Of a stretch of 19,356 nt of DNA, positions 88-18,526 are shown piece after piece; position 1 is the first letter of the stretch, and each line of letters starts with the position of its first letter. The stretch lies in contig JAEOUJ010000178.1 in assembly GCA_016839405.1 (NCBI GenBank), positions 1 through 19,356 on the forward strand. Reading direction: 5' to 3'. The position numbers and the translations under genes are program-made. The notes under the pieces are model-generated. The model did not search any database, was not told the DNA's origin, and saw nothing but the letters and a program-made list of their open reading frames with translations. The stretch is from Candidatus Gerdarchaeota archaeon. Lineage in GTDB: Archaea; Asgardarchaeota; Heimdallarchaeia; JABLTI01.

Positions 88-140
88 GATGCAACAGGAC
101 ACACACTTCTTCTTGAAGGGCGAGAAGTCCGGTTTGGCAA
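88..140 (+). repeat. Dispersed intergenic repeat, copy 1
   Basis: This copy has the leader gatgcaacagg, the conserved block acacacttcttcttgaag, and then agaagtccggtt. The right end is degenerate after position 140, without the GGACACGCT end seen in the best copies. The pairing CTTCT / AGAAG is intact. It lies about 160 bp upstream of the first gene. No gene is visible in 1-300; the rest is A/T-rich sequence with a TATA-like stretch before 301. The leader matches that of copy 7, so these two may form a subfamily. Confidence 0.85.
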
Positions 141-270
141 TAAATTTCTATTTGAGAAGTTACTATTGACTGAATTAGTTTTATTTGGCTTTTTTCTTTT
201 AAATTCAATTATAAAGTAGATTTGATTTTTGTCTAGAGACATAAATCCAAAAAAATAATAAACTTATTTT

Positions 271-297
271 AATATTTTATATTAATAAGGAGGGTGA
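271..297 (+). promoter_or_regulatory. Probable archaeal promoter and Shine-Dalgarno before the TTG-start gene
   Basis: An AT-only TATA-like stretch (aatattttatatt, from 271) is followed by a strong ribosome binding site, aaggagggtga at about 287-297. The spacing to TTG at 301 is good. The ribosome site is what decides the TTG start. The promoter assignment is an inference from position and composition. Confidence 0.45.
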
Positions 298-300
298 TAC

Positions 301-612
301 TTGAATAAGTATGGACTTTTAGTTAGATTAAAGGAATTACCTGAATGGATATGGGATAGGATTACTTTAGTTGCGTATTTGATAATAAATGGCGATACTG
401 TAGCAGCTAAAGCAATACAAATTGCTCCTAATGAAAAATTTTTCAAAGTCATAGCTGAACATGTAGATGCTTACATAAAGGATGGTAAAATGCCTCCTGA
501 ACCTATAGCAACAGCTATTCTCAATTTCGCTGATGATTTAATGGCAAACGGAAAAATGACTATTAGAACTGGCGATTACATAGCAATACAAAATCATATT
601 CGGAAAAAATAA
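301..612 (+). CDS. Small protein of unknown function upstream of a radical SAM enzyme
   Basis: This is a 103-residue protein starting at TTG, chosen because a strong aaggagggtga site sits just upstream. I recognise no family. It has no signal peptide, no cysteine and no clear membrane helix. The first half is rich in aliphatic and aromatic residues (PEWIWDR near residue 14) and the whole looks mainly helical. The stop is followed at once by a T-rich run (ccttcttttttttatt), which could end transcription. Only about 70 bp separate it from the radical SAM/SPASM gene. It could therefore be a partner or substrate of that enzyme, as small genes next to SPASM enzymes often are. It lacks the usual hallmarks of a peptide precursor (Cys-rich or Gly-rich core, Gly-Gly leader), so this is only a possibility. 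Confidence 0.7.
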   Translation: MNKYGLLVRLKELPEWIWDRITLVAYLIINGDTVAAKAIQIAPNEKFFKVIAEHVDAYIKDGKMPPEPIATAILNFADDLMANGKMTIRTGDYIAIQNHIRKK

Positions 613-684
613 CATCCTTCTTTTTTTTTATTAATCCAGATATTAATGAAATATATTATGATTAATAATTTGAAAGGTGATTAT

Positions 685-1722
685 ATGGTTTTTGAAGGAT
701 TTCCTTTTATTGTTGGTTGGGAATTAACACTAAAATGTAATATAAGATGTCGTCACTGTGGCTCTTCTGCTGGTATACCAAGGGAAAATGAGCTGACTTT
801 AAAAGAATCATTATCGATATGTGACCAATTTCCAGATCTTTTAGTTCAAGAAGTTAATTTCACAGGTGGAGAACCATTATTGTGTCATTTTTGGGATAAA
901 TTGGCTGGTTACTTAACTGATTTAGGAATAAAAACTAAAATTCTAACAAATGGATTAACTTTAGATAAAGAAATCATAAAAAGAATAAAAGAAGTTGAAA
1001 TTGAAGGTATTGGTATAAGCTTAGATGGTCTTGAAAAGACTCATAATCACATTCGAGGAAGAGAAGGACTTTTTCAAGAAGTTATAAAAGCAATTAAACA
1101 AGTATTGGAGAATGATATTCCCTTAACAATAATTACAACAGTAAATGCGCTTAATATTGGGGAACTATCTAGAATGTATGATTTATTGCAAACACTAGAT
1201 GTTAAACAATGGCAGATACAGCCAATTTTTCCTTTTGGGCGTGGGAAAATTTCATCTGATCTTTTATTTCCTATAAAAACATATATGCAATTAGGCTATT
1301 TCGTGAAAAAACATATCTCTAGAAACCGCGAAAATGGTTTAAAATTAATACCAGCTGATAGCTATGGTTACTTTACTGAGCTAGATGAGAGAGAACGACC
1401 TTGGAGAGGATGTTCAGCTGGAATTGTTTCAGTTGGCATCACTAGTAATGGTAAGATTAAAGGTTGTCTTTCACTTCCAGATGAAATAATTGAAGGTGAT
1501 TTACGAAAAAATGATTTATGGGATATATGGTTTAATCCAAATTCCTTCTCTTATACTCGGCAATTTAAAAAAGAACATTTAGGTGATAATTGTAAGACCT
1601 GTGATAAAGCAAAACAATGTCAAGGCGGGTGTTCAGCTATGTCATATGGTAGTACAGGTAAATTTCATAATGATTTATATTGTTTTTATGGAATAAAGAA
1701 CTCAAAAAATAGGAATATCTAG
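685..1722 (+). CDS. Radical SAM protein with SPASM domain
   Basis: This is a 345-residue cytoplasmic iron-sulfur enzyme. The radical SAM cluster motif CX3CX2C is at C18, C22 and C25 (CNIRCRHC), and the SAM-binding GGEP is at residues 61-64. A C-terminal SPASM domain carries seven cysteines (C243, C261, C303, C306, C312, C316, C333), the pattern for auxiliary 4Fe-4S clusters. Families with this layout mature peptides or modify heme and cofactor precursors (PqqE, MftC, anSME, NirJ/AhbD types); the substrate cannot be read from sequence. An upstream ATG at 646 is in frame, but ATG 685 is preferred because aaaggtga lies 5 bp before it. The core begins within 20 residues of that start, as is usual. 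It ends with TAG, so TAG acts as a normal stop here. It may be co-transcribed with the small gene upstream. Confidence 0.92.
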   Translation: MVFEGFPFIVGWELTLKCNIRCRHCGSSAGIPRENELTLKESLSICDQFPDLLVQEVNFTGGEPLLCHFWDKLAGYLTDLGIKTKILTNGLTLDKEIIKRIKEVEIEGIGISLDGLEKTHNHIRGREGLFQEVIKAIKQVLENDIPLTIITTVNALNIGELSRMYDLLQTLDVKQWQIQPIFPFGRGKISSDLLFPIKTYMQLGYFVKKHISRNRENGLKLIPADSYGYFTELDERERPWRGCSAGIVSVGITSNGKIKGCLSLPDEIIEGDLRKNDLWDIWFNPNSFSYTRQFKKEHLGDNCKTCDKAKQCQGGCSAMSYGSTGKFHNDLYCFYGIKNSKNRNI

Positions 1723-1790
1723 ATTAAAACATTTCTGAAAAAGTAACATAATATGCCATTACAAATATATTACTAACATAAGTTTATAGT

Positions 1791-1840
1791 AACGAGCTTC
1801 ACTTCTTTTTTAAGGGCTAGAAGTTCGGTTCGGGAAGGAT
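1791..1840 (+). repeat. Dispersed intergenic repeat, copy 2
   Basis: The copy reads cacttcttttttaagggc, then agaagttcggttcgggaa and ggat. Compared with the best copies, the 3' hairpin arms are GTTC / GGAT instead of GTCC / GGAC. This keeps pairing through G-U and changed pairs, and is mild support for a selected RNA or single-strand structure. It sits 88 bp upstream of the first surface-protein gene. The left part (leader) is diverged. Confidence 0.75.
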
Positions 1841-1865
1841 AAGATTAGATTAAAAGTTTAAAATT

Positions 1866-1927: not shown

Positions 1928-4564
1928 ATGAAAAAATATAGAAGTTTTTTAATAGTTTTCATATTAATTATGAGTATTTTTCTTAGCTTTGCGAAAATTG
2001 AATCGAAAGAAAAAGAAACAGGAAATGATTTATTATTCCAACCTCAAGCAATAGGAGTGTATGAAAAATGGAGTTATACCACAGGGGATTGGATTCTTTC
2101 TTCATCAGTAGTAGCAGATCTAGATGCTAATGGAATCTTTGAGGTATTAATAGGGTCTTTTGATCAAAGGCTATATTGTTTAAATCAAGTAGGTGGTTTT
2201 GTTTGGAATTTTACAACTGGTGATATGATTTATTCTTCACCATGTGTTGCAGATCTTAATGCAGATGGTAAGCTTGAAATTCTTATTGGATCTTTTGATC
2301 AAAAACTCTACTGTTTAAATTACACTGGAGACGAAATGTGGAGTTACCTAATAGGTGATTTTATCTGGTCATCACCTTGTATTGCTGATATTGATAATGA
2401 TGGTTCATTAGAGGTTTTAATAGGTTCAAATGATGATAAGCTGTATTGTATTAGTAACTCAGGTACTCTAGAGTGGAGTTATCAGACAGATAATGATATA
2501 GAATCCACACCAGCAGTTGCTGATTTAAACTCAGATGGTTTCTTGGAAGTATTAGTTGGATCACGTGATAATAAATTATATTGCCTAAATTGCTTTGGTG
2601 ATTCTGTATGGAATTATACAACAGCAAACCAAATTACCGCTTCTCCTACAATAACAGATTTAAATGAGGATGGAACTTATGAAATTTTAATTGGATGTCA
2701 TGATTACAAATTGTATTGTATAGATCATACAGGAGTGCAAGAATGGAATTATACAACTTTTGGAATGGTTGGATATTCTGCAGCAGTTGCTAATCTTAAT
2801 GGTAATAGTTACAAAGAGGTTATAATAGGTTCAAATGATGGAATGCTTTACTGTCTTGATTGGTTAGGTAATTTAGTTTGGGATTTTACAACAAGTAGTG
2901 GAATATCTAATGGACCAACTATTGCTGATTTAGATGGAGATAGTTCATTTGAAGTTTTATTTGCACTAGATTTTGGAGGTCTCTATTGTATAAGTCATCT
3001 CGGAGTTGAGGAATGGTACTGTTCAATTGGTGGAGGATTTTATTCAACACCAACAATTTTTGATTTAGATAATGATGCTATTCTGGATATTGTAATTGGA
3101 GGATTGGATAACAAAATATACTGTATTGGTTTAACAGGCGTAAGTTCAAGCGGTGATAATCCATGGTATTGTTATCATGGTTCAGTTTTCCATACAGGAC
3201 AAATGGATAGCGATAGCGATTATATGGATGATTTAACTGAAGTGTTCTATAATACTAATCCATTAAACAATGACACGGATTTTGACAATATAGAAGATTG
3301 GATTGAAATACATTACATCGGTACAGATCCAACAGATGGAGATATGGATAATGATGGTCTTTTTGATGGAGATGAATTATTTATTTATAACACAGATCCT
3401 TTTGATGCTGATTCGGATGATGATATTTTAAATGATGGTGCTGAAGTTTTAGTTTATAGTTCAGATCCTAATGATACAGATACAGATGATGATTTAATGC
3501 CTGATGGGTGGGAAGCTTCAAATGAATTAAATCTACTAGTAGATGATGCTAGTTTAGATAAAGATGAAGATGGATTAACAAACTTTGAAGAATACAGTAT
3601 TGGAACCTTAGCTAATTATAATGACTCAGACACAGATGGTATGCCTGATGGATGGGAGGTTGATAATACACTGAATCCATTAATTAATGATGCTTATAGT
3701 GATAAAGATACAGATGGATTACTTAATCTTGAGGAATATATTAATAATGCTGATCCAAATGATCCTGATACGGATGATGATCTTATACTTGATGGTTGGG
3801 AGGTAAGTAATAATTTGAATCCTCTTTATGATGATTCTTTAGAAGATCCTGATGAAGATTTTTTGATTAATATAGATGAATATACAAATAATTGTGACCC
3901 TCAAGATCAAGATACAGATGACGATGAATTAATAGACGGGGAAGAAGTAATAATTTATGGAACAGATCCCACTAAAAATGACTCTGATTATGATCATATG
4001 CCTGACGGTTGGGAAGTTTCCCACTCTTTAAATCCTCTGCTTGATGATGCAGCAGGTGATGCAGATATTGATAATTTAAATAATTTGAACGAGTTTTTAG
4101 AAGGACTAGATCCTCAGAATCCCGATACCGATGCAGATGCATTATTTGATGGTGATGAGTTATTAATTTACTTAACGGATCCATTAGATTATGATAGTGA
4201 TGATGATAATCTTTCTGATGGTGAAGAAGTTAGCTTAGGAACAGATGGATACTATACAAATCCAAATAAAGCTGATTCTGATGAAGATGGTTACAGTGAT
4301 GGCATTGAAGCAAATTATGGAACTAATCCTAATGATCCATATGATTATCCTGTAATTACAGATCTCCCTCCAGAAATTATTACTTTGCCACCAGAAACTA
4401 TAACATTTCCACCTGAAACCATTACACAAAATAATACAAAGACTATAACAGAAGAAATTGGATTTATTTTTTCATTTGTATTAATTTCAACAATTATTGG
4501 CATTACAATTCTTGTAATATTATTAAGAAAAAAACGAAATTATATGAGGAGGGTTATTAAATGA
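1928..4564 (+). CDS. Anchored surface protein: eight-repeat propeller head, 12-module acidic stalk (paralogue 1)
   Basis: The 878-residue protein has an N-terminal signal peptide (about residues 1-25). Eight repeats of about 47 residues follow, up to about residue 425. Each combines a PQQ-like strand set (YCLN..G..W.YTTG) with an FG-GAP-like calcium loop (ADLDxDGxxEVLxGSxD), which predicts an eight-bladed beta-propeller. Residues 426 to about 810 hold 12 Asp-rich modules of thrombospondin-type-3/dockerin-like form (DxDxDGxxDGxE...TDPxD), probably a calcium-stiffened stalk. A PPETIT-rich neck, one membrane helix (about 844-866) and a basic tail follow, so the head should face outside. The start is fixed by ggggtggg. 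Its last codons overlap the next gene (ATGA), implying an operon. It has the longest stalk of the five paralogues. The role is likely adhesion or ligand binding; the ligand is unknown. Confidence 0.9.
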   Translation: MKKYRSFLIVFILIMSIFLSFAKIESKEKETGNDLLFQPQAIGVYEKWSYTTGDWILSSSVVADLDANGIFEVLIGSFDQRLYCLNQVGGFVWNFTTGDMIYSSPCVADLNADGKLEILIGSFDQKLYCLNYTGDEMWSYLIGDFIWSSPCIADIDNDGSLEVLIGSNDDKLYCISNSGTLEWSYQTDNDIESTPAVADLNSDGFLEVLVGSRDNKLYCLNCFGDSVWNYTTANQITASPTITDLNEDGTYEILIGCHDYKLYCIDHTGVQEWNYTTFGMVGYSAAVANLNGNSYKEVIIGSNDGMLYCLDWLGNLVWDFTTSSGISNGPTIADLDGDSSFEVLFALDFGGLYCISHLGVEEWYCSIGGGFYSTPTIFDLDNDAILDIVIGGLDNKIYCIGLTGVSSSGDNPWYCYHGSVFHTGQMDSDSDYMDDLTEVFYNTNPLNNDTDFDNIEDWIEIHYIGTDPTDGDMDNDGLFDGDELFIYNTDPFDADSDDDILNDGAEVLVYSSDPNDTDTDDDLMPDGWEASNELNLLVDDASLDKDEDGLTNFEEYSIGTLANYNDSDTDGMPDGWEVDNTLNPLINDAYSDKDTDGLLNLEEYINNADPNDPDTDDDLILDGWEVSNNLNPLYDDSLEDPDEDFLINIDEYTNNCDPQDQDTDDDELIDGEEVIIYGTDPTKNDSDYDHMPDGWEVSHSLNPLLDDAAGDADIDNLNNLNEFLEGLDPQNPDTDADALFDGDELLIYLTDPLDYDSDDDNLSDGEEVSLGTDGYYTNPNKADSDEDGYSDGIEANYGTNPNDPYDYPVITDLPPEIITLPPETITFPPETITQNNTKTITEEIGFIFSFVLISTIIGITILVILLRKKRNYMRRVIK

Positions 4565-6327
4565 GTAAAAATAAACAAGGAATTATCCTTATCATTTTAT
4601 TATTTGTATTTACTTGTAATTGTAAAATGATTACTGAAGTTAAGAAGAGTATTGTGGAGTTAGATTCAGAGCCAATTCCTCCAATTATGGGTGTTTTTGA
4701 AAAATGGAGTAAATATATTGGGTCTTGGGCTTTAAACTCACCAACTTTTATAGATTTAAATAGAGATGGAAAACTCGAAATTTTTATTGGTTCATCAGAT
4801 TTTAATCTATATTGTTTAAATTTTTCTGGAAATGAAATTTGGAGTTATACATCGACTGACAGTATTGATTCTACTCCAGCAATAGCTGATATTGATAATG
4901 ATAATTTATTTGAAATATTGGTTGGATCTATGAACAATAAATTTCATTGTTTGGATCAAACTGGAGAAGTAGAGTGGAGTTTCACGACAGGCAATTCTAT
5001 TATATCTTCACCAGCAATAGCTGATATTGATGATGATGACGAATTTGAAATTCTTGTAGGATCCACAGATTCTAAGTTCTATTGTTTAAATCACACGGGA
5101 GGTTTGGAATGGAGCTATACAACTGGGGGATCTTGCCAAGCATCTTCAGCTATAGGAGATTTAGATGGAGATGGTACAATGGAAATACTTGTAGGATCAT
5201 TTTATGATAAACTATATTGTTTTAATCATTCAGGTGGAATAGAATGTGATTATACTTCAGGTGATGCAATTTTTTCATCTGCTGCAATTGCAGATTTAGA
5301 AGGCGATGGTTCATATGAGATACTAGTAGGATCACAAGATCAGATTGTTTATTGTTTAAATCACACGGGAGGTTTGGAATGGAGCTATTTAACTGATGAT
5401 TTGATAATTTCTTCACCAGCAGTAGCTGATTTAAATGGAGATGGATATTTAGAAGTTCTCATTGGATCAGCTGATAATAGACTTTATTGTCTAAATTATA
5501 CTGGTGGAGTTGAATGGTTCTATACAACTGGAGATGATATATGGTCTTCTCCCACTATAGCAGATCTTGATGGAGATACATCATTAGAAATAATAGTCGG
5601 TTCTCATGACTATAACATCTATTGTATTAGTCATAATGGAACATTAGAATGGAGTTTCCCAACATTTGGTGAGATTTGGTCTTCTCCAGCAGTTGCAGAT
5701 CTCGATGATAATGGAGTTTTAGAAGTTCTTTTTAGTTCTAATGAAGGTTATCTATATTGTCTTGGATTAACAGGTACAAGTTTAAGTGGAGATAGCCCAT
5801 GGTATTGTTTTCGAGGATCGGTTTTTCATACTGGACAGATGGATTTCGATAGTGATTTTTTGGATGATCTCACTGAAAGTTATTATGAAACGAATCCATT
5901 GAAAAAAGATACTGATAATGATAATTTGAATGATAATTATGAAATTCATTATACTTTTACAAATCCACTAAATAATGATACTGATAATGATAGTCTTTTA
6001 GATGGTGAGGAAGTTGTAGTAGGATTAGATGGGTATATCACTGATCCAAATGACAGTGACTCGGATGACGATGGCTTTGGAGATGGTGTAGAAGCTAATT
6101 TTAATACTAATCCAAATGATCCTAATGATTATCCTCAAGCAACAACTCCACCACCTATAACTATCACTCCACCTCCGGTGACAATAACTCCTCCACCTAA
6201 TACCTTTACTCTTAATGAAACAATTACTGTAACTGTTCAAGCTGGTTTCATTTTCTCATCATTAATTATCACAACAATAATCGGGATTACTACAATAAGG
6301 CTTCTCTTTAGAAAACGACGAAAATAA
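4561..6327 (+). CDS. Anchored surface protein: eight-repeat propeller head, 4-module stalk (paralogue 2)
   Basis: The 588-residue protein starts within the stop of the gene before it (ATGA overlap). Its own aggaggg site lies inside that gene's end, so the two are probably coupled and co-expressed. The N-terminus has a hydrophobic signal (about residues 8-20) with two close cysteines (FTCNCK), unlike the other paralogues. Eight propeller repeats run to about residue 426. The Asp-rich stalk has only four modules, the shortest in the family. A PPP(I/V)TIT neck, a membrane helix (about 561-580) and a RKRRK tail close the protein. Asn-X-Thr/Ser sequons recur at the repeat joints. A hairpin terminator follows the stop. 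Pairing of a long-stalk and a short-stalk member in one operon suggests they work together or as alternatives. Confidence 0.9.
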   Translation: MSKNKQGIILIILLFVFTCNCKMITEVKKSIVELDSEPIPPIMGVFEKWSKYIGSWALNSPTFIDLNRDGKLEIFIGSSDFNLYCLNFSGNEIWSYTSTDSIDSTPAIADIDNDNLFEILVGSMNNKFHCLDQTGEVEWSFTTGNSIISSPAIADIDDDDEFEILVGSTDSKFYCLNHTGGLEWSYTTGGSCQASSAIGDLDGDGTMEILVGSFYDKLYCFNHSGGIECDYTSGDAIFSSAAIADLEGDGSYEILVGSQDQIVYCLNHTGGLEWSYLTDDLIISSPAVADLNGDGYLEVLIGSADNRLYCLNYTGGVEWFYTTGDDIWSSPTIADLDGDTSLEIIVGSHDYNIYCISHNGTLEWSFPTFGEIWSSPAVADLDDNGVLEVLFSSNEGYLYCLGLTGTSLSGDSPWYCFRGSVFHTGQMDFDSDFLDDLTESYYETNPLKKDTDNDNLNDNYEIHYTFTNPLNNDTDNDSLLDGEEVVVGLDGYITDPNDSDSDDDGFGDGVEANFNTNPNDPNDYPQATTPPPITITPPPVTITPPPNTFTLNETITVTVQAGFIFSSLIITTIIGITTIRLLFRKRRK

Positions 6328-6330
6328 GTT

Positions 6331-6363: not shown

Positions 6364-6366
6364 ATA

Positions 6367-6425
6367 ATACTCAGGGCACACACTTCTTCTTGAAGGGCTA
6401 GAAGTTTGGTTCGAGAGGGACAAAC
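6367..6425 (+). repeat. Dispersed intergenic repeat, copy 3
   Basis: The copy has atactcagggcacacac, then cttcttcttgaagggc, then agaagtttggttcgagag and ggac. The 3' arms GTTT / GGAC still pair through two G-U pairs. It sits between two convergent genes, downstream of both, so it cannot be a promoter element for either. It is on the plus strand like all other copies. Confidence 0.85.
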
Positions 6426-6428
6426 TTC

Positions 6429-6463
6429 TAATTAGAAAAAAATTAACCTCTATTGAGGTTAAT
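6429..6463 (-). terminator. Terminator of minus-strand surface protein, overlapping its stop
   Basis: A 9-bp perfect hairpin (arms 6442-6450 and 6455-6463, loop tatt) contains the stop codon of the minus-strand gene. On the minus strand it is followed directly by a run of eight or more T. The hairpin overlaps the coding end. Confidence 0.75.
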
Positions 6464-8516: not shown

Positions 8517-8529
8517 CGTAAAAAAATAG

Positions 8530-8580
8530 AATCAGGACACACACTTCTTCTTGAAGTGTTGGAAGTTCATTTTGTAAGAA
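8530..8580 (+). repeat. Dispersed intergenic repeat, copy 4 (degenerate right end)
   Basis: The copy reads atcaggacacacac, cttcttcttgaag, then ggaagttcattttg. The CTTCT / GGAAG arms still pair with one G-U, but the GGTTCG block is lost. It lies between two minus-strand genes while itself being on the plus strand. The rest of the gap 8462-8689 shows only AT-rich sequence besides the leader. Confidence 0.75.
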
Positions 8581-10347: not shown

Positions 10348-10460
10348 TGAAGAATAATTAATGGAAAATGAAATGGTTATTCAAGTGGTAGATGTAATAA
10401 AAGACAAAGTTGAGCACAAATGTTTCAATGATTCTTTTATAATTCTACCATTTCTTCTTT

Positions 10461-10477
10461 TTAATGAATTTCATTAA
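10461..10477. repeat. Short perfect palindrome between two genes
   Basis: The arms ttaatgaa and ttcattaa surround a single T. It may be a weak hairpin or a protein-binding operator in the gap 10348-10597. This is the only longer gap besides 15249-15519 that lacks a repeat core. Nothing else is seen there apart from a 38-codon frame without ribosome site. Confidence 0.25.
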
Positions 10478-10597
10478 GAAATTATTTTCCATGAAATAAC
10501 TTGAGTGATAATTCAAAACGTTTAAGTGAAAACAAGAAGCTAATATTGCGGAAATTTTTCAGCAAGGGAGAAGAATTGTAGCATGGAGGGTGACACA

Positions 10598-11102: not shown

Positions 11103-11207
11103 GATCTTTTTATTTTGATGTTAGAAAAAATCAGTGAAATAAGATGCTCAGGACACACACTTCTTCTTGAAGGGCTAGTAGTACGGTTCGTGAAGGACAC
11201 GCTGAGG
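11103..11207 (+). repeat. Dispersed intergenic repeat, copy 6 (long form)
   Basis: The left module gatctttttattttgatg is at 11103, and the core gatgctcaggacacacac ... ggttcgtgaaggacacgctgagg at 11143-11207. An outer stem pairs ctcag (11147-11151) with ctgag (11202-11206), closing the whole core. The 3' hairpin arm is changed to GTAC and the inner arm to AGTAG, so the inner pairs are weakened. The gap 11015-11508 holds this copy and the terminator; between 11208 and 11496 I see nothing but AT-rich sequence. Confidence 0.88.
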
Positions 11208-11508
11208 TGGTAAGTACCTGATAACTGATATTAGATTATAATGATAATTTTTTCTCTTACTAATTCTTCATCCAAATAGTTGTTTATCGTATTTCCCCGA
11301 TAATTTTGCTAAAAAAACTAATTGATAATAAAATGGAAAAATAAATAAAACAAAGTGAGATTATGTTTTTGAGGAACGAATGGTTAGGATTTTCATTAAA
11401 ATAGATACAGGAAATGGCTAAGGATTCCTCGATCTTTAATTGTTAATTTTAAATTTCATTTATAGTTTAGTTAGTAATGAATTAATTACAAAAAAATGGA
11501 GGACTTAT

Positions 11509-12147
11509 TTGAACAATAAATTAAAAAAAATATTAATGATGAGTATTTTATTAATCACTAATTTTGTTTTACTTTCCTCTGCAAGTTATTTGGCTTCTAA
11601 CAGACAATTCGATATTGATTGGATATTTCCATATGATGATGCAATTGTTAAAACAAGAATACGATTTTTCGGTCAGTTTTGGACTGATTTATGTGAACTT
11701 CCACCTGGTACAACATGTGATGATTTTAGAAGTGGATATGTAGGTAATTATAGTGATTTTAATTATATAGGTGTCTATATTATGATTGGATTATCTTTTG
11801 TATCATTACTGATTGGCATTGTGTTTACATTCAAACCTAAAATAAGTTGTATAATTAATATCGTTGGAGCATTTTTTGGATTGGTTGCACTGGGGTTATT
11901 TATACCATTACGTAATAATATAAATCATCCTCTTACAGATTTCTTTTCAAATTTTGACCCAGCATTACAGCTTACAGCTGCATTCTATTTTAGTATCATA
12001 ATTTTCATCACAATTCTTGTCATTGGAATAATTACTCTTTACAAAAATTTCAGTCCTAAATATCTTGAAAAAGAGGTAGAAGTCCTTGAAGAAAAATTAT
12101 CAGAACGTTCTAGTAAAAGATTATCTGATATCAGTCAAGAAAAATAA
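11509..12147 (+). CDS. Four-helix membrane protein with claudin-like first loop
   Basis: This is a 212-residue protein from TTG 11509, supported by atggagga just upstream; a longer TTG start at 11440 has no site. Membrane helices lie at about 8-28, 87-108, 111-134 and 157-178, with the first loop of about 58 residues and a charged C-terminal tail with a coiled-coil-like KEVEVLEEKLSER. The first loop has W38, then GQFW (55-58), C62 and C70. Eukaryotic claudin/PMP22 proteins share this topology and the order W...GLW..C...C (claudin-1: W30, GLW 49-51, C54, C64); the W-to-first-C distance, 24, is the same. This resemblance is read by eye and may be convergence. The C62-C70 pair would form an outer disulfide. 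No other function is suggested by the neighbours. Confidence 0.8.
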   Translation: MNNKLKKILMMSILLITNFVLLSSASYLASNRQFDIDWIFPYDDAIVKTRIRFFGQFWTDLCELPPGTTCDDFRSGYVGNYSDFNYIGVYIMIGLSFVSLLIGIVFTFKPKISCIINIVGAFFGLVALGLFIPLRNNINHPLTDFFSNFDPALQLTAAFYFSIIIFITILVIGIITLYKNFSPKYLEKEVEVLEEKLSERSSKRLSDISQEK

Positions 12148-12213: not shown

Positions 12214-12279
12214 GATGCAACAGGACACACACTTCTTCTTTAAGGTCTAGAAGTCCAATTCGGTAATGACACGCTGAAG
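12214..12279 (+). repeat. Dispersed intergenic repeat, copy 7
   Basis: The leader gatgcaacagg is the same as in copy 1. Then come acacacttcttctttaagg, agaagtccaattcggtaa and gacacgctgaagt. The CTTCT / AGAAG stem is intact; the GTCC / TGAC pair is broken at one place. It lies between two convergent genes. The surrounding gap 12148-12444 shows only AT-rich sequence and a loose aaatctc / gagattt inverted pair before the minus-strand gene's end. Confidence 0.85.
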
Positions 12280-12420
12280 TTAATTATTTGGAATCTCAGG
12301 ATAATGTTTAGGGGGAAATAGGCAGTAATTTTTTTTACTAATAATTCTCTTTGATGGGAGATAGAGTAAGTAATAAATCTCATTATGGAAAATAAAATTA
12401 AGCTTAAAAATAAGAGATTT

Positions 12421-12444: not shown

Positions 12445-12924
12445 TTAGTTGAGTTCGATACTTTTACTTATACCACCTAGAAATCCAGAAAGAGCATTCA
12501 ATAAAAGAGAAATAACTGTAAAAACAACACAAATAAGCAAACCATGTCCCCAGATAAAACGACTTGTAACATCAGTAATATAATCACTCATATCAACACC
12601 AAAAGTTGTAAAGAAGAATAAATTATATTTATGATCCCAATAGAAAGTACTAATAATCAAGACCATACTGAAAATAAAGAATCCTAAACTTGCAAACAAA
12701 CCACTAAAAACACCTAATTTTGCATTACAAACAATTCGACCTGCAATAAATCCTCCAACAGGTATTACACAAACAAATGCAAATAATGTTATTTTACCAC
12801 CTCCTGATCCTCCTATATAATAAGGCGCAATTGCATAAATGAAATAGATAAGAGTAAATAACAAGAAGCTAGTAAAAGCTCCAACAATAGATGAAATAAA
12901 TACAGAAGAAACGTTTTTTTTCAT
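12445..12924 (-). CDS. Four-helix integral membrane protein, unknown function
   Basis: This is a 159-residue protein. ATG at 12924 is preferred over GTG at 12939 because gtgagga stands just before it on the minus strand. There are four predicted membrane helices (about 7-36, 41-62, 68-95, 124-150). Small-residue motifs, GGFIAGRIV in helix 2, KLGVFSGLFASLGFF in helix 3 and SGFLGG at the end, resemble small archaeal membrane families of the DUF5518/TIGR04086 kind. This is a resemblance, not an identification. The loop after helix 1 has a GGSGGGK stretch. It is convergent with the claudin-like gene, so the two do not share a transcript. Confidence 0.75.
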   Translation of the reverse strand: MKKNVSSVFISSIVGAFTSFLLFTLIYFIYAIAPYYIGGSGGGKITLFAFVCVIPVGGFIAGRIVCNAKLGVFSGLFASLGFFIFSMVLIISTFYWDHKYNLFFFTTFGVDMSDYITDVTSRFIWGHGLLICVVFTVISLLLNALSGFLGGISKSIELN

Positions 12925-12992
12925 ATTTTCCTCACACACTGTTTATTATATTTTCACTTCTTCAAAATGAAGTAGTAATTAAAAAGCAAAAA

Positions 12993-13175: not shown

Positions 13176-13306
13176 GGTCTTTTTATTTTGTCGTCGGAAA
13201 CAGATTAGTCTTAACTAAAAGGTAGTAAGAATATAAAAAATAAAATGCAAAGCACACACTTCCTCTTTAAGGTCTAGAAGTCCGGTTCGTGAAGGACACG
13301 CTTAGG
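13176..13306 (+). repeat. Dispersed intergenic repeat, copy 8 (long form)
   Basis: The left module ggtctttttattttgtcg with cggaaacagatta is at 13176-13207. A spacer longer than in copies 5 and 6 follows, then the core from 13245: atgcaaagcacacac, ttcctctttaagg, agaagtccggttcgtgaa and ggacacgct. The GTCC / GGAC hairpin is intact. It lies 80 bp upstream of paralogue 4, matching the place of copy 2 before paralogue 1. Confidence 0.88.
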
Positions 13307-13324
13307 AGAGATTCTTGAGTTTTT

Positions 13325-13379: not shown

Positions 13380-13385
13380 TGCTAA

Positions 13386-15248
13386 ATGAGAAAAACAAGA
13401 AAAAGTTTGATACTAATAATTATGCTAATCATATTTATTTTTGTTAAACCAATGAATTTTGAAGCGAAAAAAGAAGAAATAACAAAAGACATTGAATTTC
13501 TACCTCAAGCAATGGGAGTGTATGAAAAATGGAATTACACAACAGAAACTGTAATCAAATCATCACCAACGGTTATTGATCTTGATGGCGATGGTTTTCT
13601 AGAAGTACTTGTTGGTTCAGATGGTAATTACACATATTGTTTTAATCATACTGGTGGTCTAGAATGGAAATATAAGACAGAGCGTGTAGGTTGGTCCTCA
13701 CCTTGTGTAGCTGATTTAGATGGAGATAACATGCTAGAAGTTTTGATAAGTTCATTTGATGCGAATAAACTTTTTTGTTTAAACCACTCTGGTGGTTTGG
13801 AATGGAGCTATGCTGTAGGAGATCATGTAGGTTCTACTCCAGCGGTCGCTGATCTTGAAGGGGATGGTAAACAAGAAGTTTTAGTTGGATCAGATGATGG
13901 CAATCTTTATTGTATAAGTCATTTAGGAAATAAAAAATGGAATTACACAACTGGTGGTTTTATTCATTCTTCACCTGCAATTGCTGACCTTGATTGGGAC
14001 GGTACATTAGAAATACTTGTAGGTTCAAGCGATGGTAATTTTTATTGTTTGAATCACAAAGGAGTAGCAGAATGGAGCTATACAATTGGAGGAAATATTT
14101 TCTGTTCTCCTACTATTGCAGATATTGATGCAGATGGTTCTTTGGAAGTATTGGTAGGATCTTCAGCACCTATTTTTCCTAATGGTTTTTACTGCTTCAA
14201 TAATACTGGGGTAGAATGGAGTAAATTTTTTGATGGTATATATACTTCTCCAGCTGTAGCTGATCTTGATGGAGATGGACTAATGGAAGTCCTTTTTGGA
14301 TTGGATTTGAGTTGGCTTATCGGTTTAGATTGTTTTGGTACATATACTTATACGTATAGTAGTTTTAATTCGGTACATTCCTCTCCTGCAATTGCGGATC
14401 TTGATGGGGATGGCAAACTGGAAGTGTTATTTGGTGATCATAGCGGTGTGCTTTGGTGTTATAATTACACAAGTTATTATAGGTGGCACTATGATGCAGG
14501 TGGTCAAATTTTATCTTCTCCAGCTGTGGCTGATTTAGATGGCGATGGTATTCTAGAAATTTTGGTAGGATCAACTAATTCCAGATTCTATTGTTTAGGT
14601 TTATCTGGCGTTAGTTCCAGTGGGGATGCTCCTTGGTATTGTTTTCGTGGATCAGCTTTCCGTACTGGGCAGAAAGATAGTGAAAATGATTATTTAGATG
14701 ATTTAACTGAAAGTTTTTACAACACTGATCCTAAAGATCCTGATACTGATCATGATGATCTAAATGATTTCGATGAGATCTTTATTTATCATACTAATCC
14801 TACAGAAAGCGATGTTGACAATGATATATTACTTGACGGCAAAGAACTTGCTGTTGGTACTGATCCCTTTGATGATGATACTGACAATGATGCACTGATT
14901 GATGGTTATGAAGTAAATGGGTTTTACAGCCCATCAAATCCTGGTGCAAATGCTACTGGATATGTACATACTAATCCCCTTAAACCAGACTCAGATGGAG
15001 ATACTTACATTGATAGCGTTGAGATTTATTCTAATACCGATCCAAACGATCCTTTAAGCATTCCAGAACCAGAAACAATAACATTTCCACCGGTTACTGT
15101 TACTCCTCCCCCAGAAACAATAATCATAACTCAAAATAATACCATTACAACGACAGTTGAAACGGGTATCATTTTTTCATCAATTATTATCACAGCAATT
15201 GTTGGAATAACTACCTTAACGCTTCTCCTCAGAAAACGACGAAGATAA
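13386..15248 (+). CDS. Anchored surface protein: eight-repeat propeller head, 5-module stalk (paralogue 4)
   Basis: The 620-residue protein has a signal peptide (about residues 1-26), PQAMGVYEKWNYTT as first-blade signature, and eight propeller repeats to about residue 429. Repeats 5 and 6 have insertions and depart from the family pattern (for example DLSWLIGLDCFG), so this head may have a distinct binding face. Five Asp-rich stalk modules follow; module 4 is extended by a GANATGYVHTNP loop. A PPPETI neck, a membrane helix (about 594-614) and a RKRRR tail end it. The start is fixed by ttcggggtggg. Its leader and upstream repeat resemble those of paralogue 1, so the unit appears to have been copied together with its upstream region. 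A hairpin terminator follows. Confidence 0.9.
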   Translation: MRKTRKSLILIIMLIIFIFVKPMNFEAKKEEITKDIEFLPQAMGVYEKWNYTTETVIKSSPTVIDLDGDGFLEVLVGSDGNYTYCFNHTGGLEWKYKTERVGWSSPCVADLDGDNMLEVLISSFDANKLFCLNHSGGLEWSYAVGDHVGSTPAVADLEGDGKQEVLVGSDDGNLYCISHLGNKKWNYTTGGFIHSSPAIADLDWDGTLEILVGSSDGNFYCLNHKGVAEWSYTIGGNIFCSPTIADIDADGSLEVLVGSSAPIFPNGFYCFNNTGVEWSKFFDGIYTSPAVADLDGDGLMEVLFGLDLSWLIGLDCFGTYTYTYSSFNSVHSSPAIADLDGDGKLEVLFGDHSGVLWCYNYTSYYRWHYDAGGQILSSPAVADLDGDGILEILVGSTNSRFYCLGLSGVSSSGDAPWYCFRGSAFRTGQKDSENDYLDDLTESFYNTDPKDPDTDHDDLNDFDEIFIYHTNPTESDVDNDILLDGKELAVGTDPFDDDTDNDALIDGYEVNGFYSPSNPGANATGYVHTNPLKPDSDGDTYIDSVEIYSNTDPNDPLSIPEPETITFPPVTVTPPPETIIITQNNTITTTVETGIIFSSIIITAIVGITTLTLLLRKRRR

Positions 15249-15254
15249 GTTAAT

Positions 15255-15287
15255 GTGAAAGCAATTAGAACTTTCACTTATTTTTTA
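15255..15287 (+). terminator. Hairpin terminator after paralogue 4
   Basis: The arms gtgaaag (15255-15261) and ctttcac (15271-15277) are followed by ttattttttaaat. The distance from the stop is the same as at the end of paralogue 2, and the arms resemble it (gaaag / ctttc). Confidence 0.7.
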
Positions 15288-15315
15288 AATATTTATAAAG
15301 CAATGTTTCTCTAGC

Positions 15316-15347
15316 GATCTTTTTATTTTGTCGTCGGAAACAGATTA
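15316..15347 (+). repeat. Detached left module of the dispersed repeat
   Basis: The sequence gatctttttattttgtcg followed by tcggaaacagatta is the same as in copies 5 and 8, but no acacacttcttc core follows. The bases 15348-15400 are AT-rich with only loose likeness to a core. It shows the left module is a unit of its own, or that the core was lost here. Confidence 0.8.
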
Positions 15348-15466
15348 AATTCAAATAAGATAAAAAAAGATTGCAAATATTATCTAGAAATCTAATTATA
15401 TAGATGAATATAAGTAAATAATTAAGCTAAAAGTAAATGAACAACATTTATTTAAATTAATTAGTG

Positions 15467-15509
15467 TGTATAAAAACCGTTTTTTGTATTTAATTAGGAA
15501 AAAGGAGGA
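15467..15509 (+). promoter_or_regulatory. Promoter and ribosome site of the coiled-coil protein gene
   Basis: A TATA-like tgtataaaaac (15467-15477) lies about 27 bp before the expected transcript start, and aaaggagga stands at 15501-15509, about 10 bp before ATG 15520. This favours ATG 15520 over the in-frame GTG at 15466, which would overlap the TATA box. Confidence 0.5.
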
Positions 15510-15519
15510 ATTAAAACGG

Positions 15520-16917
15520 ATGAATAATAAATTACTCATTCCATTAATTATTGTTTCAGTTAGTGGTTTAACAGTAAGTGGATCGTTTTCAGGTTTGTTT
15601 ATTGCTAAACAAGTAAAATACAACCAATTAACAAATACTTTTGATGATTTGTCAGGTGACTATCAATCTCTTTTCAATACTCATGAAGAGTTAGTTGGCG
15701 ATTTTGAGGAATTATCAAGTGATTATCAAACAATTCTTGATGATTATAATTCTTTAATAGAACAATATGATATACTCGAGGGAAACATCACCACTCTACA
15801 AACTGCTTACGATACTTTGAATGCAAGTTATTTAGCTTTACAAAATCTTTTCAATGATTTGCAAACAGATTATAATGATCTATTACAACAATACAATGAT
15901 CTTTTAAGTGATTATAATGATCGAGAGGAAGATTTTGGGGATCTTGAACAAAATTATAATGACCTATTAACTCAGTATAATGCTTTACAACAATCATTTA
16001 ATGATTTATTAAGCGATTTTAATGATTTATCACTAGCTTATGATGATTTACTAATCAACTACAATGATCTACAAGATCAATATGATGTTTTAGAGTTAGA
16101 ATTAATAGCATTACAAAATGCAATAATACAATTAATTTTACCAGCTCAATATACCGATTTCGCAGAAGCTGTTAGAAGATATTATTTACCAATATATCTA
16201 GGTGGTAAAACAGACAAAACTTATTGGATGGCTTTTGCTGAATATTGCAGAGATGTCATATTACATGATTCCTATCAAGAAAATTCCTTTTCAGATGTTT
16301 CTGATGCCTTTTCAGATTGTTTGAAATATGGTTCTAATACAATGAATTTAGCATGGTATATAATGTACAATACCTTTTATGATTGGTTACCTAATTGGGA
16401 TGGCTGGGGATTAACAGGTAATGAATTTACTGATTTAGAAACATTAACACAATGGTGTATTGATGAAATCGATTATGAATATGATACTCATATTACAGTT
16501 GGACAAGAATATTTTACTTATGATTACATCAAATTCCCTGTTGAAACAGCTTTTAGAACTTTAGGCGATTGTGAAGATCAAGCAATATTATGTGCAGCTT
16601 ACTTAGAATCATGTGGATTTGAAACAATGGTTTTGATAAGTCATGATCCTGATCATCCTGTACGTGGCCCATTTTATCATGGTAGTCTAATGGTTCATAT
16701 AGAAGATACAACGACTTTTCACTTACTATATCCAGCTTCATTGTGGAGTTTTGGTTCTAGCGATCCCTACTATCCTGATTATACTTGGTGTTGGCTTGAT
16801 CCTACTTGGGACATTCCTTTTGGTCAATTTATACCCTGGGTAGTTGAATATGGTGGTTCAATCAGCTTTGATGTTTTAAGTGCAGCTATTTGTGACATAG
16901 ATGGTATTATAGTTTAA
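15520..16917 (+). CDS. Anchored coiled-coil protein with transglutaminase-like cysteine domain
   Basis: This is a 465-residue protein. One N-terminal signal-anchor helix (about 5-29) is followed by a long coiled coil (about 33-205) built from seven-residue units such as YNDLLxx, repeated many times and lacking Pro. A globular C-terminal half follows. It contains LGDCEDQAIL with C351, GSLMVH with H393 and WLDPTW with D427. The order Cys-His-Asp is that of the transglutaminase/papain-like fold. The His-to-Asp distance (34) is longer than in many members, so I infer a transglutaminase-like cysteine peptidase or peptide-modifying domain rather than a true transglutaminase. The domain should be held away from the membrane, probably outside, by the coiled coil. 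Its substrate could be the nearby surface proteins, but nothing proves that. Confidence 0.85.
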   Translation: MNNKLLIPLIIVSVSGLTVSGSFSGLFIAKQVKYNQLTNTFDDLSGDYQSLFNTHEELVGDFEELSSDYQTILDDYNSLIEQYDILEGNITTLQTAYDTLNASYLALQNLFNDLQTDYNDLLQQYNDLLSDYNDREEDFGDLEQNYNDLLTQYNALQQSFNDLLSDFNDLSLAYDDLLINYNDLQDQYDVLELELIALQNAIIQLILPAQYTDFAEAVRRYYLPIYLGGKTDKTYWMAFAEYCRDVILHDSYQENSFSDVSDAFSDCLKYGSNTMNLAWYIMYNTFYDWLPNWDGWGLTGNEFTDLETLTQWCIDEIDYEYDTHITVGQEYFTYDYIKFPVETAFRTLGDCEDQAILCAAYLESCGFETMVLISHDPDHPVRGPFYHGSLMVHIEDTTTFHLLYPASLWSFGSSDPYYPDYTWCWLDPTWDIPFGQFIPWVVEYGGSISFDVLSAAICDIDGIIV

Positions 16918-16994
16918 TACATATTGAATGGTGGATTCTCTCTCTTTTTTGTGATAAAAAGATAACAATTGCTAGGTTTTTATTAATTAAAATT

Positions 16995-17048
16995 CATCAA
17001 GACACACACTTCTTCTTTAAGGGTAAGAAGTCCAGTTCGGAAAAAATA
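16995..17048 (+). repeat. Dispersed intergenic repeat, copy 9
   Basis: The copy reads catcaagacacacac, ttcttctttaaggg, agaagtccagttcgg, then a run of A instead of GGACACGCT. The CTTCT / AGAAG stem is intact. Before it, 16918-16994 holds a pyrimidine run (ctctctcttttttg) that may end the upstream transcript. Confidence 0.8.
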
Positions 17049-17116
17049 CATTAAAATTGTAAGAACAAGCAATTTGAGAATCATCTAAAATTTCAGAAGT
17101 TTTATCTTACGCATAA

Positions 17117-17160
17117 ACCTTATAATTCATCCATCTTTGTTTTAAGATATCTCAAGAGGA
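17117..17160 (+). promoter_or_regulatory. Promoter and ribosome site of the dehydrogenase gene
   Basis: The TATA-like aaccttataatt (about 17117-17128) and caagagga (17153-17160), six bases before ATG 17167, fit an archaeal promoter and leader. Confidence 0.5.
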
Positions 17161-17166
17161 TTAGAT

Positions 17167-18303
17167 ATGAAAGTTGTCGTTTTAGGAGTAGGATATTCAG
17201 GTAATGTTATAGCAAGAGATTTAGCAGAAGATCCCTCAAATGAGGTTACTATAGTTGATATTAACCAAGAAGTTTTAGATAAACTAAAACAAGACTATGA
17301 TCTTCATGGAATATGTGCAGATTTATCCAATCCAAATACAATCAAAGATATTGTGAAGGATTTTGATTTAGTAATAGGAGCTCTTCCTTATTTCTTAGGT
17401 TATAAGGCTATTAAAGCAGTTATTGAAGCAGGAAAGAATATGGTAGATATTTCATATTTCGAGGAAGATGCATTAAGCTTAAATGAATTAGCAAAGGAGA
17501 AAGGAGTTACAGTTGTTGTTGACTGTGGAGTAGCTCCAGGCTTAAGTAATATCATACTTGGTTATATTGATTCAATCTTAGATAAAACAGAGAGTTTCCT
17601 ATGCTATGTAGGGGGATTACCAGTAGAAAGAAACTGGCTTTTTGATTATAAATCACCTTATCCACCTATTGAAGTACTAGAGGAATACATCCTAACTGCG
17701 AGATATATTGAGAATGGTAAGATAGTTGAGAAACCTGCATTATCTGAACATGAATTAATGGAGTTTCCAGAAGTAGGAACACTAGTAACCATTAACACCG
17801 ATGGTCTTAGAACTCTCATAAAGACAATGAATATCCCTTTCATGAAAGAAAAAACACTAAGGTATCCAGAGCATATAGAAAAGATGAAAATGCTAATAGA
17901 AGCAGGATTCCTCAAAACAGAGGAAATTAATGTAAAAGGAAAAATGATCAAACCAATTGAGTTAACTCATAGACTTCTAGTTGATCATTGGATGTTTGAA
18001 GAAGGAGATGAAGATTTTACTGCTATGAAGATAATTATTGAAGGAATAAAGGATGGCAAGAAACTACGTTATACCTATGATATGTTTGATAAGTATGATA
18101 AGGAGAAGGGCATTTTATCTATAGCAAGAACAACAGGTTATACATGTACAGCAATTGCTCAAATTATACTTGAAGGAAAATTCAAAGAAAAAGGAATCAT
18201 TCCTCCAGAACTATTAGGAAAACATTCAGAAGTCTTTAACCAATTTATTGAATATTTACAGAAAAGAAATGTGATATTTAAGGAAACTATCGAAGAACTG
18301 TAA
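17167..18303 (+). CDS. Saccharopine dehydrogenase-like / lysine dehydrogenase-like oxidoreductase
   Basis: This is a 378-residue cytoplasmic enzyme of the saccharopine dehydrogenase family. An N-terminal Rossmann fold has G7xG9xxG12 (GVGYSG) and D31 at the end of strand 2, which points to NAD(H) rather than NADP(H). The family segment DCGVAPGLSN is at residues 119-128. A C-terminal TTGYTCTAIAQIILEGK, followed by GIIPPELLG, is typical of the archaeal and bacterial lysine dehydrogenase-like branch. The reaction is probably oxidation of an amino acid or saccharopine-like imine; the exact substrate is not readable. Length is normal for the family. No related pathway gene lies beside it. It is the only ordinary metabolic enzyme besides the radical SAM protein in this window. 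Confidence 0.9.
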   Translation: MKVVVLGVGYSGNVIARDLAEDPSNEVTIVDINQEVLDKLKQDYDLHGICADLSNPNTIKDIVKDFDLVIGALPYFLGYKAIKAVIEAGKNMVDISYFEEDALSLNELAKEKGVTVVVDCGVAPGLSNIILGYIDSILDKTESFLCYVGGLPVERNWLFDYKSPYPPIEVLEEYILTARYIENGKIVEKPALSEHELMEFPEVGTLVTINTDGLRTLIKTMNIPFMKEKTLRYPEHIEKMKMLIEAGFLKTEEINVKGKMIKPIELTHRLLVDHWMFEEGDEDFTAMKIIIEGIKDGKKLRYTYDMFDKYDKEKGILSIARTTGYTCTAIAQIILEGKFKEKGIIPPELLGKHSEVFNQFIEYLQKRNVIFKETIEEL

Positions 18304-18378
18304 GACTAAAACAATATATAGTAATTAATGGATTTTATTAGAAATTCTGTTCATTTGTAGCGAAAATTTTCTCAAACT

Positions 18379-18526
18379 GTCTTTTTGATTTATCGTCTGA
18401 AATATGAATCTATTTGAAATTCAAATCAGTAATAAGATGCTCAGGACACACACTTCTTCTTTTAGAGTCGAGTAGGCCATTTAAGTAATGACCGCTTAAG
18501 TACTAAGTACAGGTAGGCTGAGCATC
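18379..18526 (+). repeat. Dispersed intergenic repeat, copy 10 (with 9-bp closing stem)
   Basis: A diverged left module (tgtctttttgatttatcg) is followed by the core gatgctcaggacacacac and ttcttcttttagag. Inner parts are changed (gtaggccatttaag), but the outer arms gatgctcag (18436-18444) and ctgagcatc (18518-18526) pair perfectly over 9 bp. So the closing stem is kept where the inner sequence has drifted. It lies between convergent genes. Confidence 0.82.

What the first reader, a model, noticed from the sequence alone, without database searches (positions are those of the whole stretch)
88..18526. Ten-copy non-coding repeat family, all on one strand, about one per intergenic gap
A structured sequence (consensus about gatgctcaggacacacac, ttcttcttgaagg, ctagaagtccggttcgg, gaaggacacgct) occurs at 88, 1791, 6367, 8530, 9364, 11143, 12214, 13245, 16995 and 18436. 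All copies are plus strand, although neighbouring genes point both ways. Copies lie upstream, downstream and between convergent genes, so they are neither simple promoters nor terminators. I found no reverse-strand copy. A uniform direction with ten copies is unlikely by chance. Candidate roles: a strand-biased mobile element, recombination sites, or small RNAs.
Basis: seen in the sequence. Interest (0 to 1): 0.8.

Follow-up and report, generated by a model that had tools for sequence, protein, structure and literature searches.

The report
Gene arrays punctuated by 23S rRNA tails
The repeats are shortened copies of the end of the 23S ribosomal RNA gene and the spacer just after it, and in some Heimdall archaea they separate long rows of exchangeable genes, seen in two genomes to begin at the 23S gene itself, which looks like an undescribed gene-collecting site.

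Summary
In detail: ten copies, all plus strand. They are not a small RNA. Each is the reverse complement of the 3' end of archaeal 23S rRNA plus its trailer, cut to a variable length on the 23S side. The family matches 9 of 9 genomes held of one Heimdallarchaeota family (1-54 copies; the single one of G006 is its own 23S end). Copies lie in arrays: 161 of 162 neighbouring pairs share a strand (145 of 146 without the doubtful bin G015) while ORFs point both ways, 127 versus 108. In two genomes the array begins at the 23S 3' end. Gene+tail units recur beside different neighbours: pairs sharing the gene side differ in truncation by a median of 3.5 positions, pairs sharing the other side by 15, random pairs by 19. 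Another genome of the class, with a different trailer, shows one like duplication. attC boxes are absent and RVT_1 matches 0 of 9 genomes. Best reading: DNA is captured at the 23S 3' end, leaving truncated tails, and units are shuffled by recombination between tails. The enzyme is unknown; a divergent XerA-like recombinase is a weak candidate.

The parts
89..143 (-). Trailer plus about 7 model positions of 23S
   Evidence: nhmmer model 5-58, E 4.1e-13
1786..1856 (-). 23S-tail copy 2, trailer plus 23S end to model position 75
   Evidence: E 2.9e-13
6365..6427 (-). 23S-tail copy 3, to model position 65
   Evidence: E 8.8e-15
8527..8574 (-). 23S-tail copy 4, trailer only (model 4-51)
   Evidence: E 2.5e-6; 49.3 bits with the first profile
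9363..9424 (-). 23S-tail copy 5, to model position 64
   Evidence: E 8e-19
11142..11228 (-). 23S-tail copy 6, to model position 89; 11193-11228 aligns to the terminal part of G001 23S
   Evidence: E 4.9e-24; blastn 83% to positions 232-267 of the last 269 nt of 23S
12218..12286 (-). 23S-tail copy 7, to model position 77
   Evidence: E 2e-19
13243..13311 (-). 23S-tail copy 8, to model position 73
   Evidence: E 2.1e-19
16996..17082 (-). 23S-tail copy 9; by eye secure to about 17052, weak beyond
   Evidence: E 2e-15
18435..18526 (-). 23S-tail copy 10, longest in the window; 18485-18526 aligns to the terminal part of G001 23S
   Evidence: E 7.9e-17; blastn 81%
301..1722 (+). unit between copies 1 and 2: ORF 301-612 without Pfam match and a radical SAM/SPASM protein
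1928..6327 (+). unit between copies 2 and 3: ORF 1928-4564 (Pfam not run; shares 135-nt repeats with the next gene) and a FG-GAP/beta-propeller protein
6443..8461 (-). unit between copies 3 and 4: FG-GAP/beta-propeller protein
8690..9133 (-). unit between copies 4 and 5: ORF without Pfam match
9577..10960 (+). unit between copies 5 and 6: ORF without Pfam match and a SnoaL-like protein
11440..12147 (+). unit between copies 6 and 7: ORF without Pfam match
12445..12939 (-). unit between copies 7 and 8: ORF of 164 aa (Pfam not run)
13386..16917 (+). unit between copies 8 and 9: ORF 13386-15248 (Pfam not run; shares the repeats of the FG-GAP genes) and a transglutaminase-like protein
17167..18303 (+). 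unit between copies 9 and 10: saccharopine dehydrogenase-like protein

Best explanation
The window is part of a gene-cassette array, by its relatives that of a Heimdallarchaeota-type archaeon. Each boundary is a truncated copy of the 3' end of the 23S rRNA gene plus the 3' strand of its pre-rRNA processing stem (the trailer), in one orientation. SHOWN: identity with the 23S end; one-sided truncation; uniform strand with mixed gene orientation; arrays beginning at the 23S 3' end in two genomes; reuse of the same gene+tail unit with different neighbours; linkage to the two flanks lost inside the trailer. INFERRED: new DNA is captured just downstream of 23S, held on one side by homology with the 23S end or trailer and joined on the other side illegitimately somewhere in the last tens of bases of a 23S end. 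The live 23S gene stays whole and the older, now truncated, tail is pushed downstream (a form of homology-facilitated illegitimate recombination). The tails then act as short stretches of homology through which units are exchanged between arrays and between related genomes.
For: Repeat = 23S end: the G001 23S ends at C98:102769 and its own end scores as a copy at 102723-102810; 57 of 59 BLAST hits of the last 269 nt of 23S (four native ends included) end within 7 nt of the mature 3' end. The whole 23S gave, outside native genes and those terminal pieces, one further piece of 32 nt. Array begins at 23S in G001 C98 and G007 C95. 161 of 162 same-strand neighbours; ORFs 127/108; 2 of 215 copies inside an ORF of at least 120 aa. 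Units: left-only pairs (gene next to the truncated end shared) differ in truncation by a median of 3.5 model positions (75 of 100 within 10), right-only pairs by 15 (44 of 120), random pairs by 19 (1625 of 5000), native ends left out. Example: the unit at L026_2799, L031_4436 and L028_1487 (91-98% over 500 nt, three genomes) has different right flanks; L019_13406 and L027_1154 share the right side (97% over 500 nt) but are cut at positions 34 and 97. Left linkage fades below position about 57, right linkage above about 40. Another genome of the class, G014, has a 105-nt, 96% copy of its own trailer 10 kb downstream of 23S, same orientation, cut on the 23S side. RVT_1 in 0 of 9 genomes.
Against: The illegitimate join has not been seen: no before/after pair of genomes was found. 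Tail lengths are concentrated within tens of bases, which a random join need not give; later erosion is possible (one composite tail with an internal deletion, L043 near 5602-5687). A quarter of left-only pairs (25 of 100) differ in truncation by more than 10 positions. Only two native loci link array and 23S directly; all other array contigs, the window included, are linked by sequence alone. Some copies lie elsewhere (G001 C98 at 55-56 kb and G007 C95 at 20.6 kb, opposite strand to 23S). The regions beyond the last copies of G001 C80 and G005 C33 are not syntenic. In G011, G012 and G015 no duplicated 23S end was found in 3, 39 and 16 kb downstream.
Confidence: 0.55

Rival explanations
1. Integron-like site-specific recombination: a recombinase acting in trans recognises the trailer core, with the 23S trailer as primary site and the tails as cassette sites. 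Candidate: a divergent XerA-like tyrosine recombinase with an extra segment before box I.
For: Anatomy of the arrays. The recombinase matches 6 of 54 genomes of the class at E<=1e-20, all 6 among the array-bearing ones; 27 close homologues (63-99% identity), then a drop to 32%; those whose source name gives an organism are Asgard, Heimdall- or Thorarchaeota.
Against: 3 of the 9 family genomes (G002, G006, G008; drafts) and G015 have no match. It sits in a conserved chromosomal neighbourhood without a repeat (six loci; one chance-level hit, E 0.4) and may simply be this family's XerA (NF040815: 115 bits in G001, 118-125 in four homologues, cut-off 220); 17 of 54 genomes of the class carry a match over that cut-off. 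Linkage is lost over a stretch, not at a point, and the trailer-centre haplotype follows neither flank: 11 of 17 left pairs, 6 of 12 once five pairs with native or native-like 23S ends are dropped, 5 of 15 right pairs, 0.506 at random, with 110 of 193 copies classifiable. By my reading, copies cut at position 34 lack the second half of any inverted core. G014 shows the architecture with 0 NF040815 matches.
Confidence: 0.2
2. Integrative elements, each with its own integrase, using the 23S 3' end as att site and stacking up in tandem (as at tRNA genes or SCC at rlmH; recalled).
For: Displaced 3' ends in the gene's orientation; G014's 10 kb insert with 105-nt direct repeats looks like an integrated island.
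Against: 79 of 155 intervals hold one ORF of at least 120 aa and 27 hold two; none of the 10 PF00589 matches in G001, G004, G005 and G007 lies on a contig known to hold copies (the list for G005 and G007 was cut); truncation points are scattered.
Confidence: 0.12
3. Retroposition: 5'-truncated cDNA copies of the 3' end of pre-23S rRNA, SINE-like.
For: Variable 5' truncation with a common 3' side near a U-run, and only 23S 3' terminal pieces.
Against: RVT_1 in 0 of 9 draft genomes; uniform strand within arrays while genes are mixed; tails shared between genomes as part of gene units; in G005/G007 the common sequence runs about 110-150 nt further.
Confidence: 0.06
4. A functional element in its own right (small RNA, terminator or insulator) spread between genes.
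For: Almost never inside ORFs (2 of 215); T-rich stretch after most trailers (by eye, output partly cut).
Against: No Rfam match, empty RNAalifold consensus, identity with 23S.
Confidence: 0.05

Closest known systems
[quoted passage not shown]
   Same: A variable island beside 23S; the authors propose that the flanking rRNA genes promote exchange by homologous recombination.
   Different: The passages describe a 48 kb, mainly cell-surface island flanked by the rRNA genes, and mention no rRNA pieces between individual genes.
Vibrio T6SS orphan immunity gene arrays and Rhs orphan 3' regions (PMC5361080, passages read)
   Same: Successive insertion next to an anchor, older material pushed downstream; homology-facilitated illegitimate recombination proposed.
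   Different: Protein-gene anchor, toxin-immunity cargo; here the anchor is 23S and the cargo is varied.
Integron gene-cassette arrays, including archaeal integrons, enriched in Asgard (PMC9668308, passages read)
   Same: Arrays of small gene units, each with a site in one orientation; units found in different orders.
   Different: No attC R-box pairs (1 of 193 copies, 2 of 193 controls); sites are 23S tails; genes point both ways; linkage lost over a stretch.
Integrative islands at tRNA 3' ends (recalled)
   Same: Gene 3' end duplicated in the same orientation.
   Different: No PF00589 match on the array contigs examined; many tails of different lengths.

Membership tests
Integron | attC sites with paired R boxes (RYYYAAC ... 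GTTRRRY, recalled) | tested here: not met
   1 of 193 copies versus 2 of 193 control windows; sequence boxes only, no attC covariance model was run
Integron | IntI-type integrase | tested here: inconclusive
   PF00589 matches exist; four homologues of the shared one score 31-37 bits with the integron integrase model TIGR02249, cut-off 265; draft genomes
Integron | Single fixed crossover point | tested here: inconclusive
   Left linkage fades below position about 57, right linkage above about 40; several events may be superimposed
Integron | Array of one-orientation sites between reusable gene units | tested here: met
Retroposon/SINE | Reverse transcriptase in the genome | tested here: not met
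   RVT_1 0 of 9 draft genomes; it rang in 3 of 14 control genomes
Retroposon/SINE | Constant 3' end with variable 5' truncation | tested here: inconclusive
   5' truncation variable; the 3' limit is alike within G001-G004 by eye but lies further out in G005/G007
Homology-facilitated illegitimate insertion scars | Truncated anchor remnants in anchor orientation downstream of the intact anchor | tested here: met
   G001 C98 and G007 C95; G014
Homology-facilitated illegitimate insertion scars | Before/after pair showing one homologous and one illegitimate junction | not tested
   No near-isogenic pair turned up among the genomes used
23S-flanked hypervariable island (SAR11 type) | Island directly beside the 23S gene | tested here: met
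   Two genomes directly; others fragmented
Structured RNA family | Covarying consensus structure or Rfam match | tested here: not met

The most novel reading that the evidence does not exclude
Heimdall archaea possess a dedicated gene-capture platform in which the 3' end of the 23S gene serves as the primary acceptor and its truncated copies as cassette sites. It would be a functional counterpart of the superintegron that evolved independently, perhaps driven by their divergent XerA or by pre-23S processing-stem structures extruded in the DNA, and used also by another lineage of the class with a different trailer.
Probability: 0.3. Interest if true: 0.92.

Novelty: new variant of a known kind. 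Interest (0 to 1): 0.82.

Why it matters
It gives a concrete site and a sequence signature for how some Heimdall-type archaea (close to the ancestry of eukaryotes; recalled) collect and reshuffle accessory genes. The tails mark unit borders, so array genes can be listed and traced between species, and the question of what moves genes in these archaea becomes directly testable. It also suggests that rRNA gene ends can seed gene-cassette arrays, and warns that MAG assemblies may break at such tails, as the G006 and G005 contigs do.

Tried and rejected
Small RNA/structured RNA: Rfam on the window and six loci, RNAalifold on 36 copies; nothing. A tRNA gene: none in the window. Viral origin: exact core pattern in 0 viral contigs. 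Integron attC: R-box test negative. Retroposition: no RVT_1 match. Replichore bias: rejected because the strand flips within contigs G001 C98 and G007 C95. Common distal boundary of arrays: no synteny between G001 C80 and G005 C33, three weak protein matches only. Defence-island reading: 135 ORFs of at least 100 aa from 13 loci gave 166 Pfam and 114 PADLOC families, of which only the top 25 each are shown, without one dominant function. G015 was first counted as array-bearing (10 of 58); its own 23S has another 3' end and trailer and gives no hit with the repeat profile, so those contigs are probably mis-binned and I rely on 9 genomes. A long-window duplex test of leader and trailer was weak (-46.4 and -41.1; best of 200 shuffles -50.2 and -42.7); shorter windows gave z -3.3 and -3.5, with 2 and 1 of 500 mononucleotide shuffles as good. 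The 4.5 kb upstream of 23S, searched as a control, did hit other loci (for instance 90% over 2.6 kb in G015 L092, about 65% over 0.9-1.5 kb elsewhere); I read these as shared genes, not as rRNA pieces, and did not follow them up. G013 was uninformative (its 23S end was not placed).
Full report
What is in the window. Ten plus-strand copies are present; no minus-strand copy reached the thresholds. Scores are far from chance (E 2.5e-6 to 4.9e-24), although window copies helped to build the model; the repeat finder sees them without a model. The window has 14 main ORFs, 10 plus and 4 minus, no tRNA and no Rfam match above chance level. No whole genome is held for it, so its assignment to a Heimdallarchaeota-type archaeon is inference from the relatives below.

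Where else it occurs. One scan of the species-genome collection with a 19-letter core gave 16 stretches; 14 lie in four MAGs titled Heimdallarchaeota (three) or Asgard group (one), and the two others, a Bacteroidales and a Halobacillus, are single core matches. A 36-copy sequence model found 63, 19, 22 and 31 copies in those four genomes (E<=0.01) and at least one in 9 of 9 genomes of the family (E<=1e-4; 1 to 54 copies). The single copy of G006 is its own 23S end at a contig end, so eight genomes show extra copies. In the class it found 10 of 58 genomes, the family's nine and G015. G015's own 23S has another 3' end and trailer and no hit with the profile, so its copies probably sit on mis-binned contigs.

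What it is. The longest copies read, on the opposite strand, as the 3' end of archaeal 23S rRNA. Rfam LSU_rRNA_archaea places the G001 23S at C98:98488-102769 and the G007 23S at C95:25794-29052; each gene's own end is itself scored as a copy, at 102723-102810 and 29006-29095. By position, model positions above about 52 are mature 23S and those below are the trailer. The trailer pairs with the leader before 23S on short windows (z -3.3 and -3.5; 2 and 1 of 500 shuffles as good), less clearly on long ones. In G014, another genome of the class, 25 trailer bases have an exact complement just upstream of 23S. I therefore read the trailer as the 3' strand of the pre-23S processing stem; such stems are described for archaea in PMC8339473 (passages).

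Truncation is one-sided. Of 59 BLAST hits of the last 269 nt of the G001 23S in the fetched loci (E<=0.01, four native ends included), 57 end within 7 nt of the mature 3' end, with starts scattered. The whole 23S gave, apart from native genes and these terminal pieces, one further 32-nt piece, in a composite tail at L043 5655-5686, which points to an internal deletion. In 193 copies the far end falls at model positions 30-39 in 7, 40-49 in 15, 50-59 in 18, 60-69 in 20, 70-79 in 42, 80-89 in 22 and 90-98 in 69, four native ends included. Copies lacking the core would escape the model.

Arrays. On 52 contigs, all fetched because they hold copies and including the window and six doubtful G015 contigs, there are 215 copies (E<=0.003). 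35 of the 37 contigs with two or more copies are uniform; 161 of 162 neighbouring pairs under 15 kb share a strand, 145 of 146 without G015. Of 155 intervals, 79 hold one ORF of at least 120 aa, 24 none, 27 two and 25 three or more; these ORFs point with 23S in 127 cases and against it in 108. The median gap is 1.3 kb, and 2 of 215 copies lie inside such an ORF. In G001 C98 copies run from the 23S end to near the contig end 27 kb on; in G007 C95 three copies, the native end included, lie in the 7 kb from the 23S end to the contig end. Two copies at 55-56 kb of C98 and one upstream of 23S in C95 have the opposite strand, so this is not a replichore effect. The G006 and G005 contigs break in or at the 23S end. 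Cargo is varied: 135 ORFs matched 166 Pfam families with no family in more than 6 ORFs.

Units shuffle. Among 193 copies, 124 pairs share the side next to the truncated end (here called left, rRNA sense), 153 share the other side, and 10 pairs are on both lists. With native ends left out, left-only pairs differ in truncation point by a median of 3.5 model positions (75 of 100 within 10), right-only pairs by 15 (44 of 120 within 10), random pairs by 19 (1625 of 5000 within 10); for alignments of at least 200 nt the figures are 3 (66 of 84) and 20 (16 of 49). So the truncation point travels with the left gene. Exceptions exist (25 of 100). Many right-only pairs in G005/G007 rest on about 110-150 nt of extra common trailer rather than on shared genes. 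Pairs are not independent. Across 38 selected left and 44 right pairs, left linkage is above background down to position about 57 and right linkage up to about 40; between them both are close to background. The haplotype in the centre of the trailer, classifiable in 110 of 193 copies, agrees in 11 of 17 left pairs (6 of 12 once pairs with native or native-like 23S ends are dropped) and 5 of 15 right pairs, against 0.506 at random. Thus a unit is gene plus truncated 23S tail plus part of a trailer, and exchange happens inside the trailer, apparently not at one point. That suits homologous exchange, or several superimposed events, better than one fixed site, but does not exclude the latter.

Recurrence. 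The profile does not recognise the 23S ends of G012, G014 and G015. In G014, 105 nt of its own trailer recur 10 kb downstream in the same orientation at 96%, cut on the 23S side; a second, 76% match over 71 nt lies about 0.8 kb closer to 23S. The insert carries, by my reading, SIR2/TPR-type and TnpB-type proteins (no family search was run). As a control the same comparison finds tails in G001 and G007. G012 gave, in 39 kb, only hits that I read as low-complexity; G011 one 39-nt hit of spacer beyond the stem in 3.3 kb; G015 none in 16 kb; G013 was uninformative.

Mechanism. RVT_1 matches 0 of 9 draft genomes, against retroposition. The attC boxes are absent, against an integron. The only tyrosine recombinase that I found shared among array-bearing genomes is a 351-360 aa XerA-like protein (298 aa, cut by a contig end, in G007), matching 6 of 54 genomes of the class, all in the family; G002, G006 and G008 of the family have no match. 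It sits in a conserved neighbourhood without repeats, may be the family's ordinary XerA, and is a candidate only. I favour capture at the 23S end by a homology-facilitated illegitimate join followed by exchange between tails; the first step is inferred. The closest precedents are SAR11 HVR2 (PMC2217521) and Vibrio immunity-gene arrays (PMC5361080).

Is it in print? Five searches of open full text with terms on integrons, Asgard or Heimdallarchaeota, 23S, islands and cassettes listed no paper whose title or abstract start describes 23S-tail arrays; only the best 2 to 20 papers of each were listed. In the archaeal integron paper the word rRNA does not occur in the main text. Subscription papers and preprints are not covered.

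Noticed in passing
window 9319-9347, 11106-11133, 13179-13207, 15319-15347, 18381-18410: A second short repeat (CTTTTTATTTTGTCGTCGGAAACAGATTA and variants with up to 8 differences); four of the five lie within about 100 nt of a 23S-tail copy, the one at 15319 does not. Also found with up to 5 differences in L010/L022, L024, L027, L048, L056 and L059. Its role is unknown.
   Followed up: partly
window 1928-8461, 13386-15248, 18547-19356: Several genes sharing FG-GAP/135-nt repeats in both orientations inside one array stretch, including an inverted pair 76% alike (8224-8484 and 13363-13623).
   Followed up: no
L070/L024 and L047: The G001 23S is 4282 nt against 3259 nt in G007; a stretch of about 850 nt, shared with G006, looks like an intron or a large expansion.
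   Followed up: no
L090-L095 and L102: G015 carries contigs with the family's tail copies although its own 23S has another trailer; probably a mixed bin.
   Followed up: partly
L103 9271-19634: A 10 kb insert downstream of 23S in G014, bounded by 105-nt direct repeats of the trailer, with SIR2/TPR-like and TnpB-like genes by my reading.
   Followed up: partly
G013:C45:7923-7973 and G023:C432:39695-39744: Partial matches (90-92%) to only the downstream half of the G014 trailer query; possible further displaced tails in other genomes of the class, or native trailers.
   Followed up: no
L084, L085, L086, L087: A lineage-restricted XerA-like tyrosine recombinase with an extra Cys-containing segment before box I (by my reading).
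   Followed up: partly
L043 6294-8917 and L092 5359-7973: 2.6 kb upstream of the G007 23S is 90% alike to a stretch of a G015 array contig.
   Followed up: no
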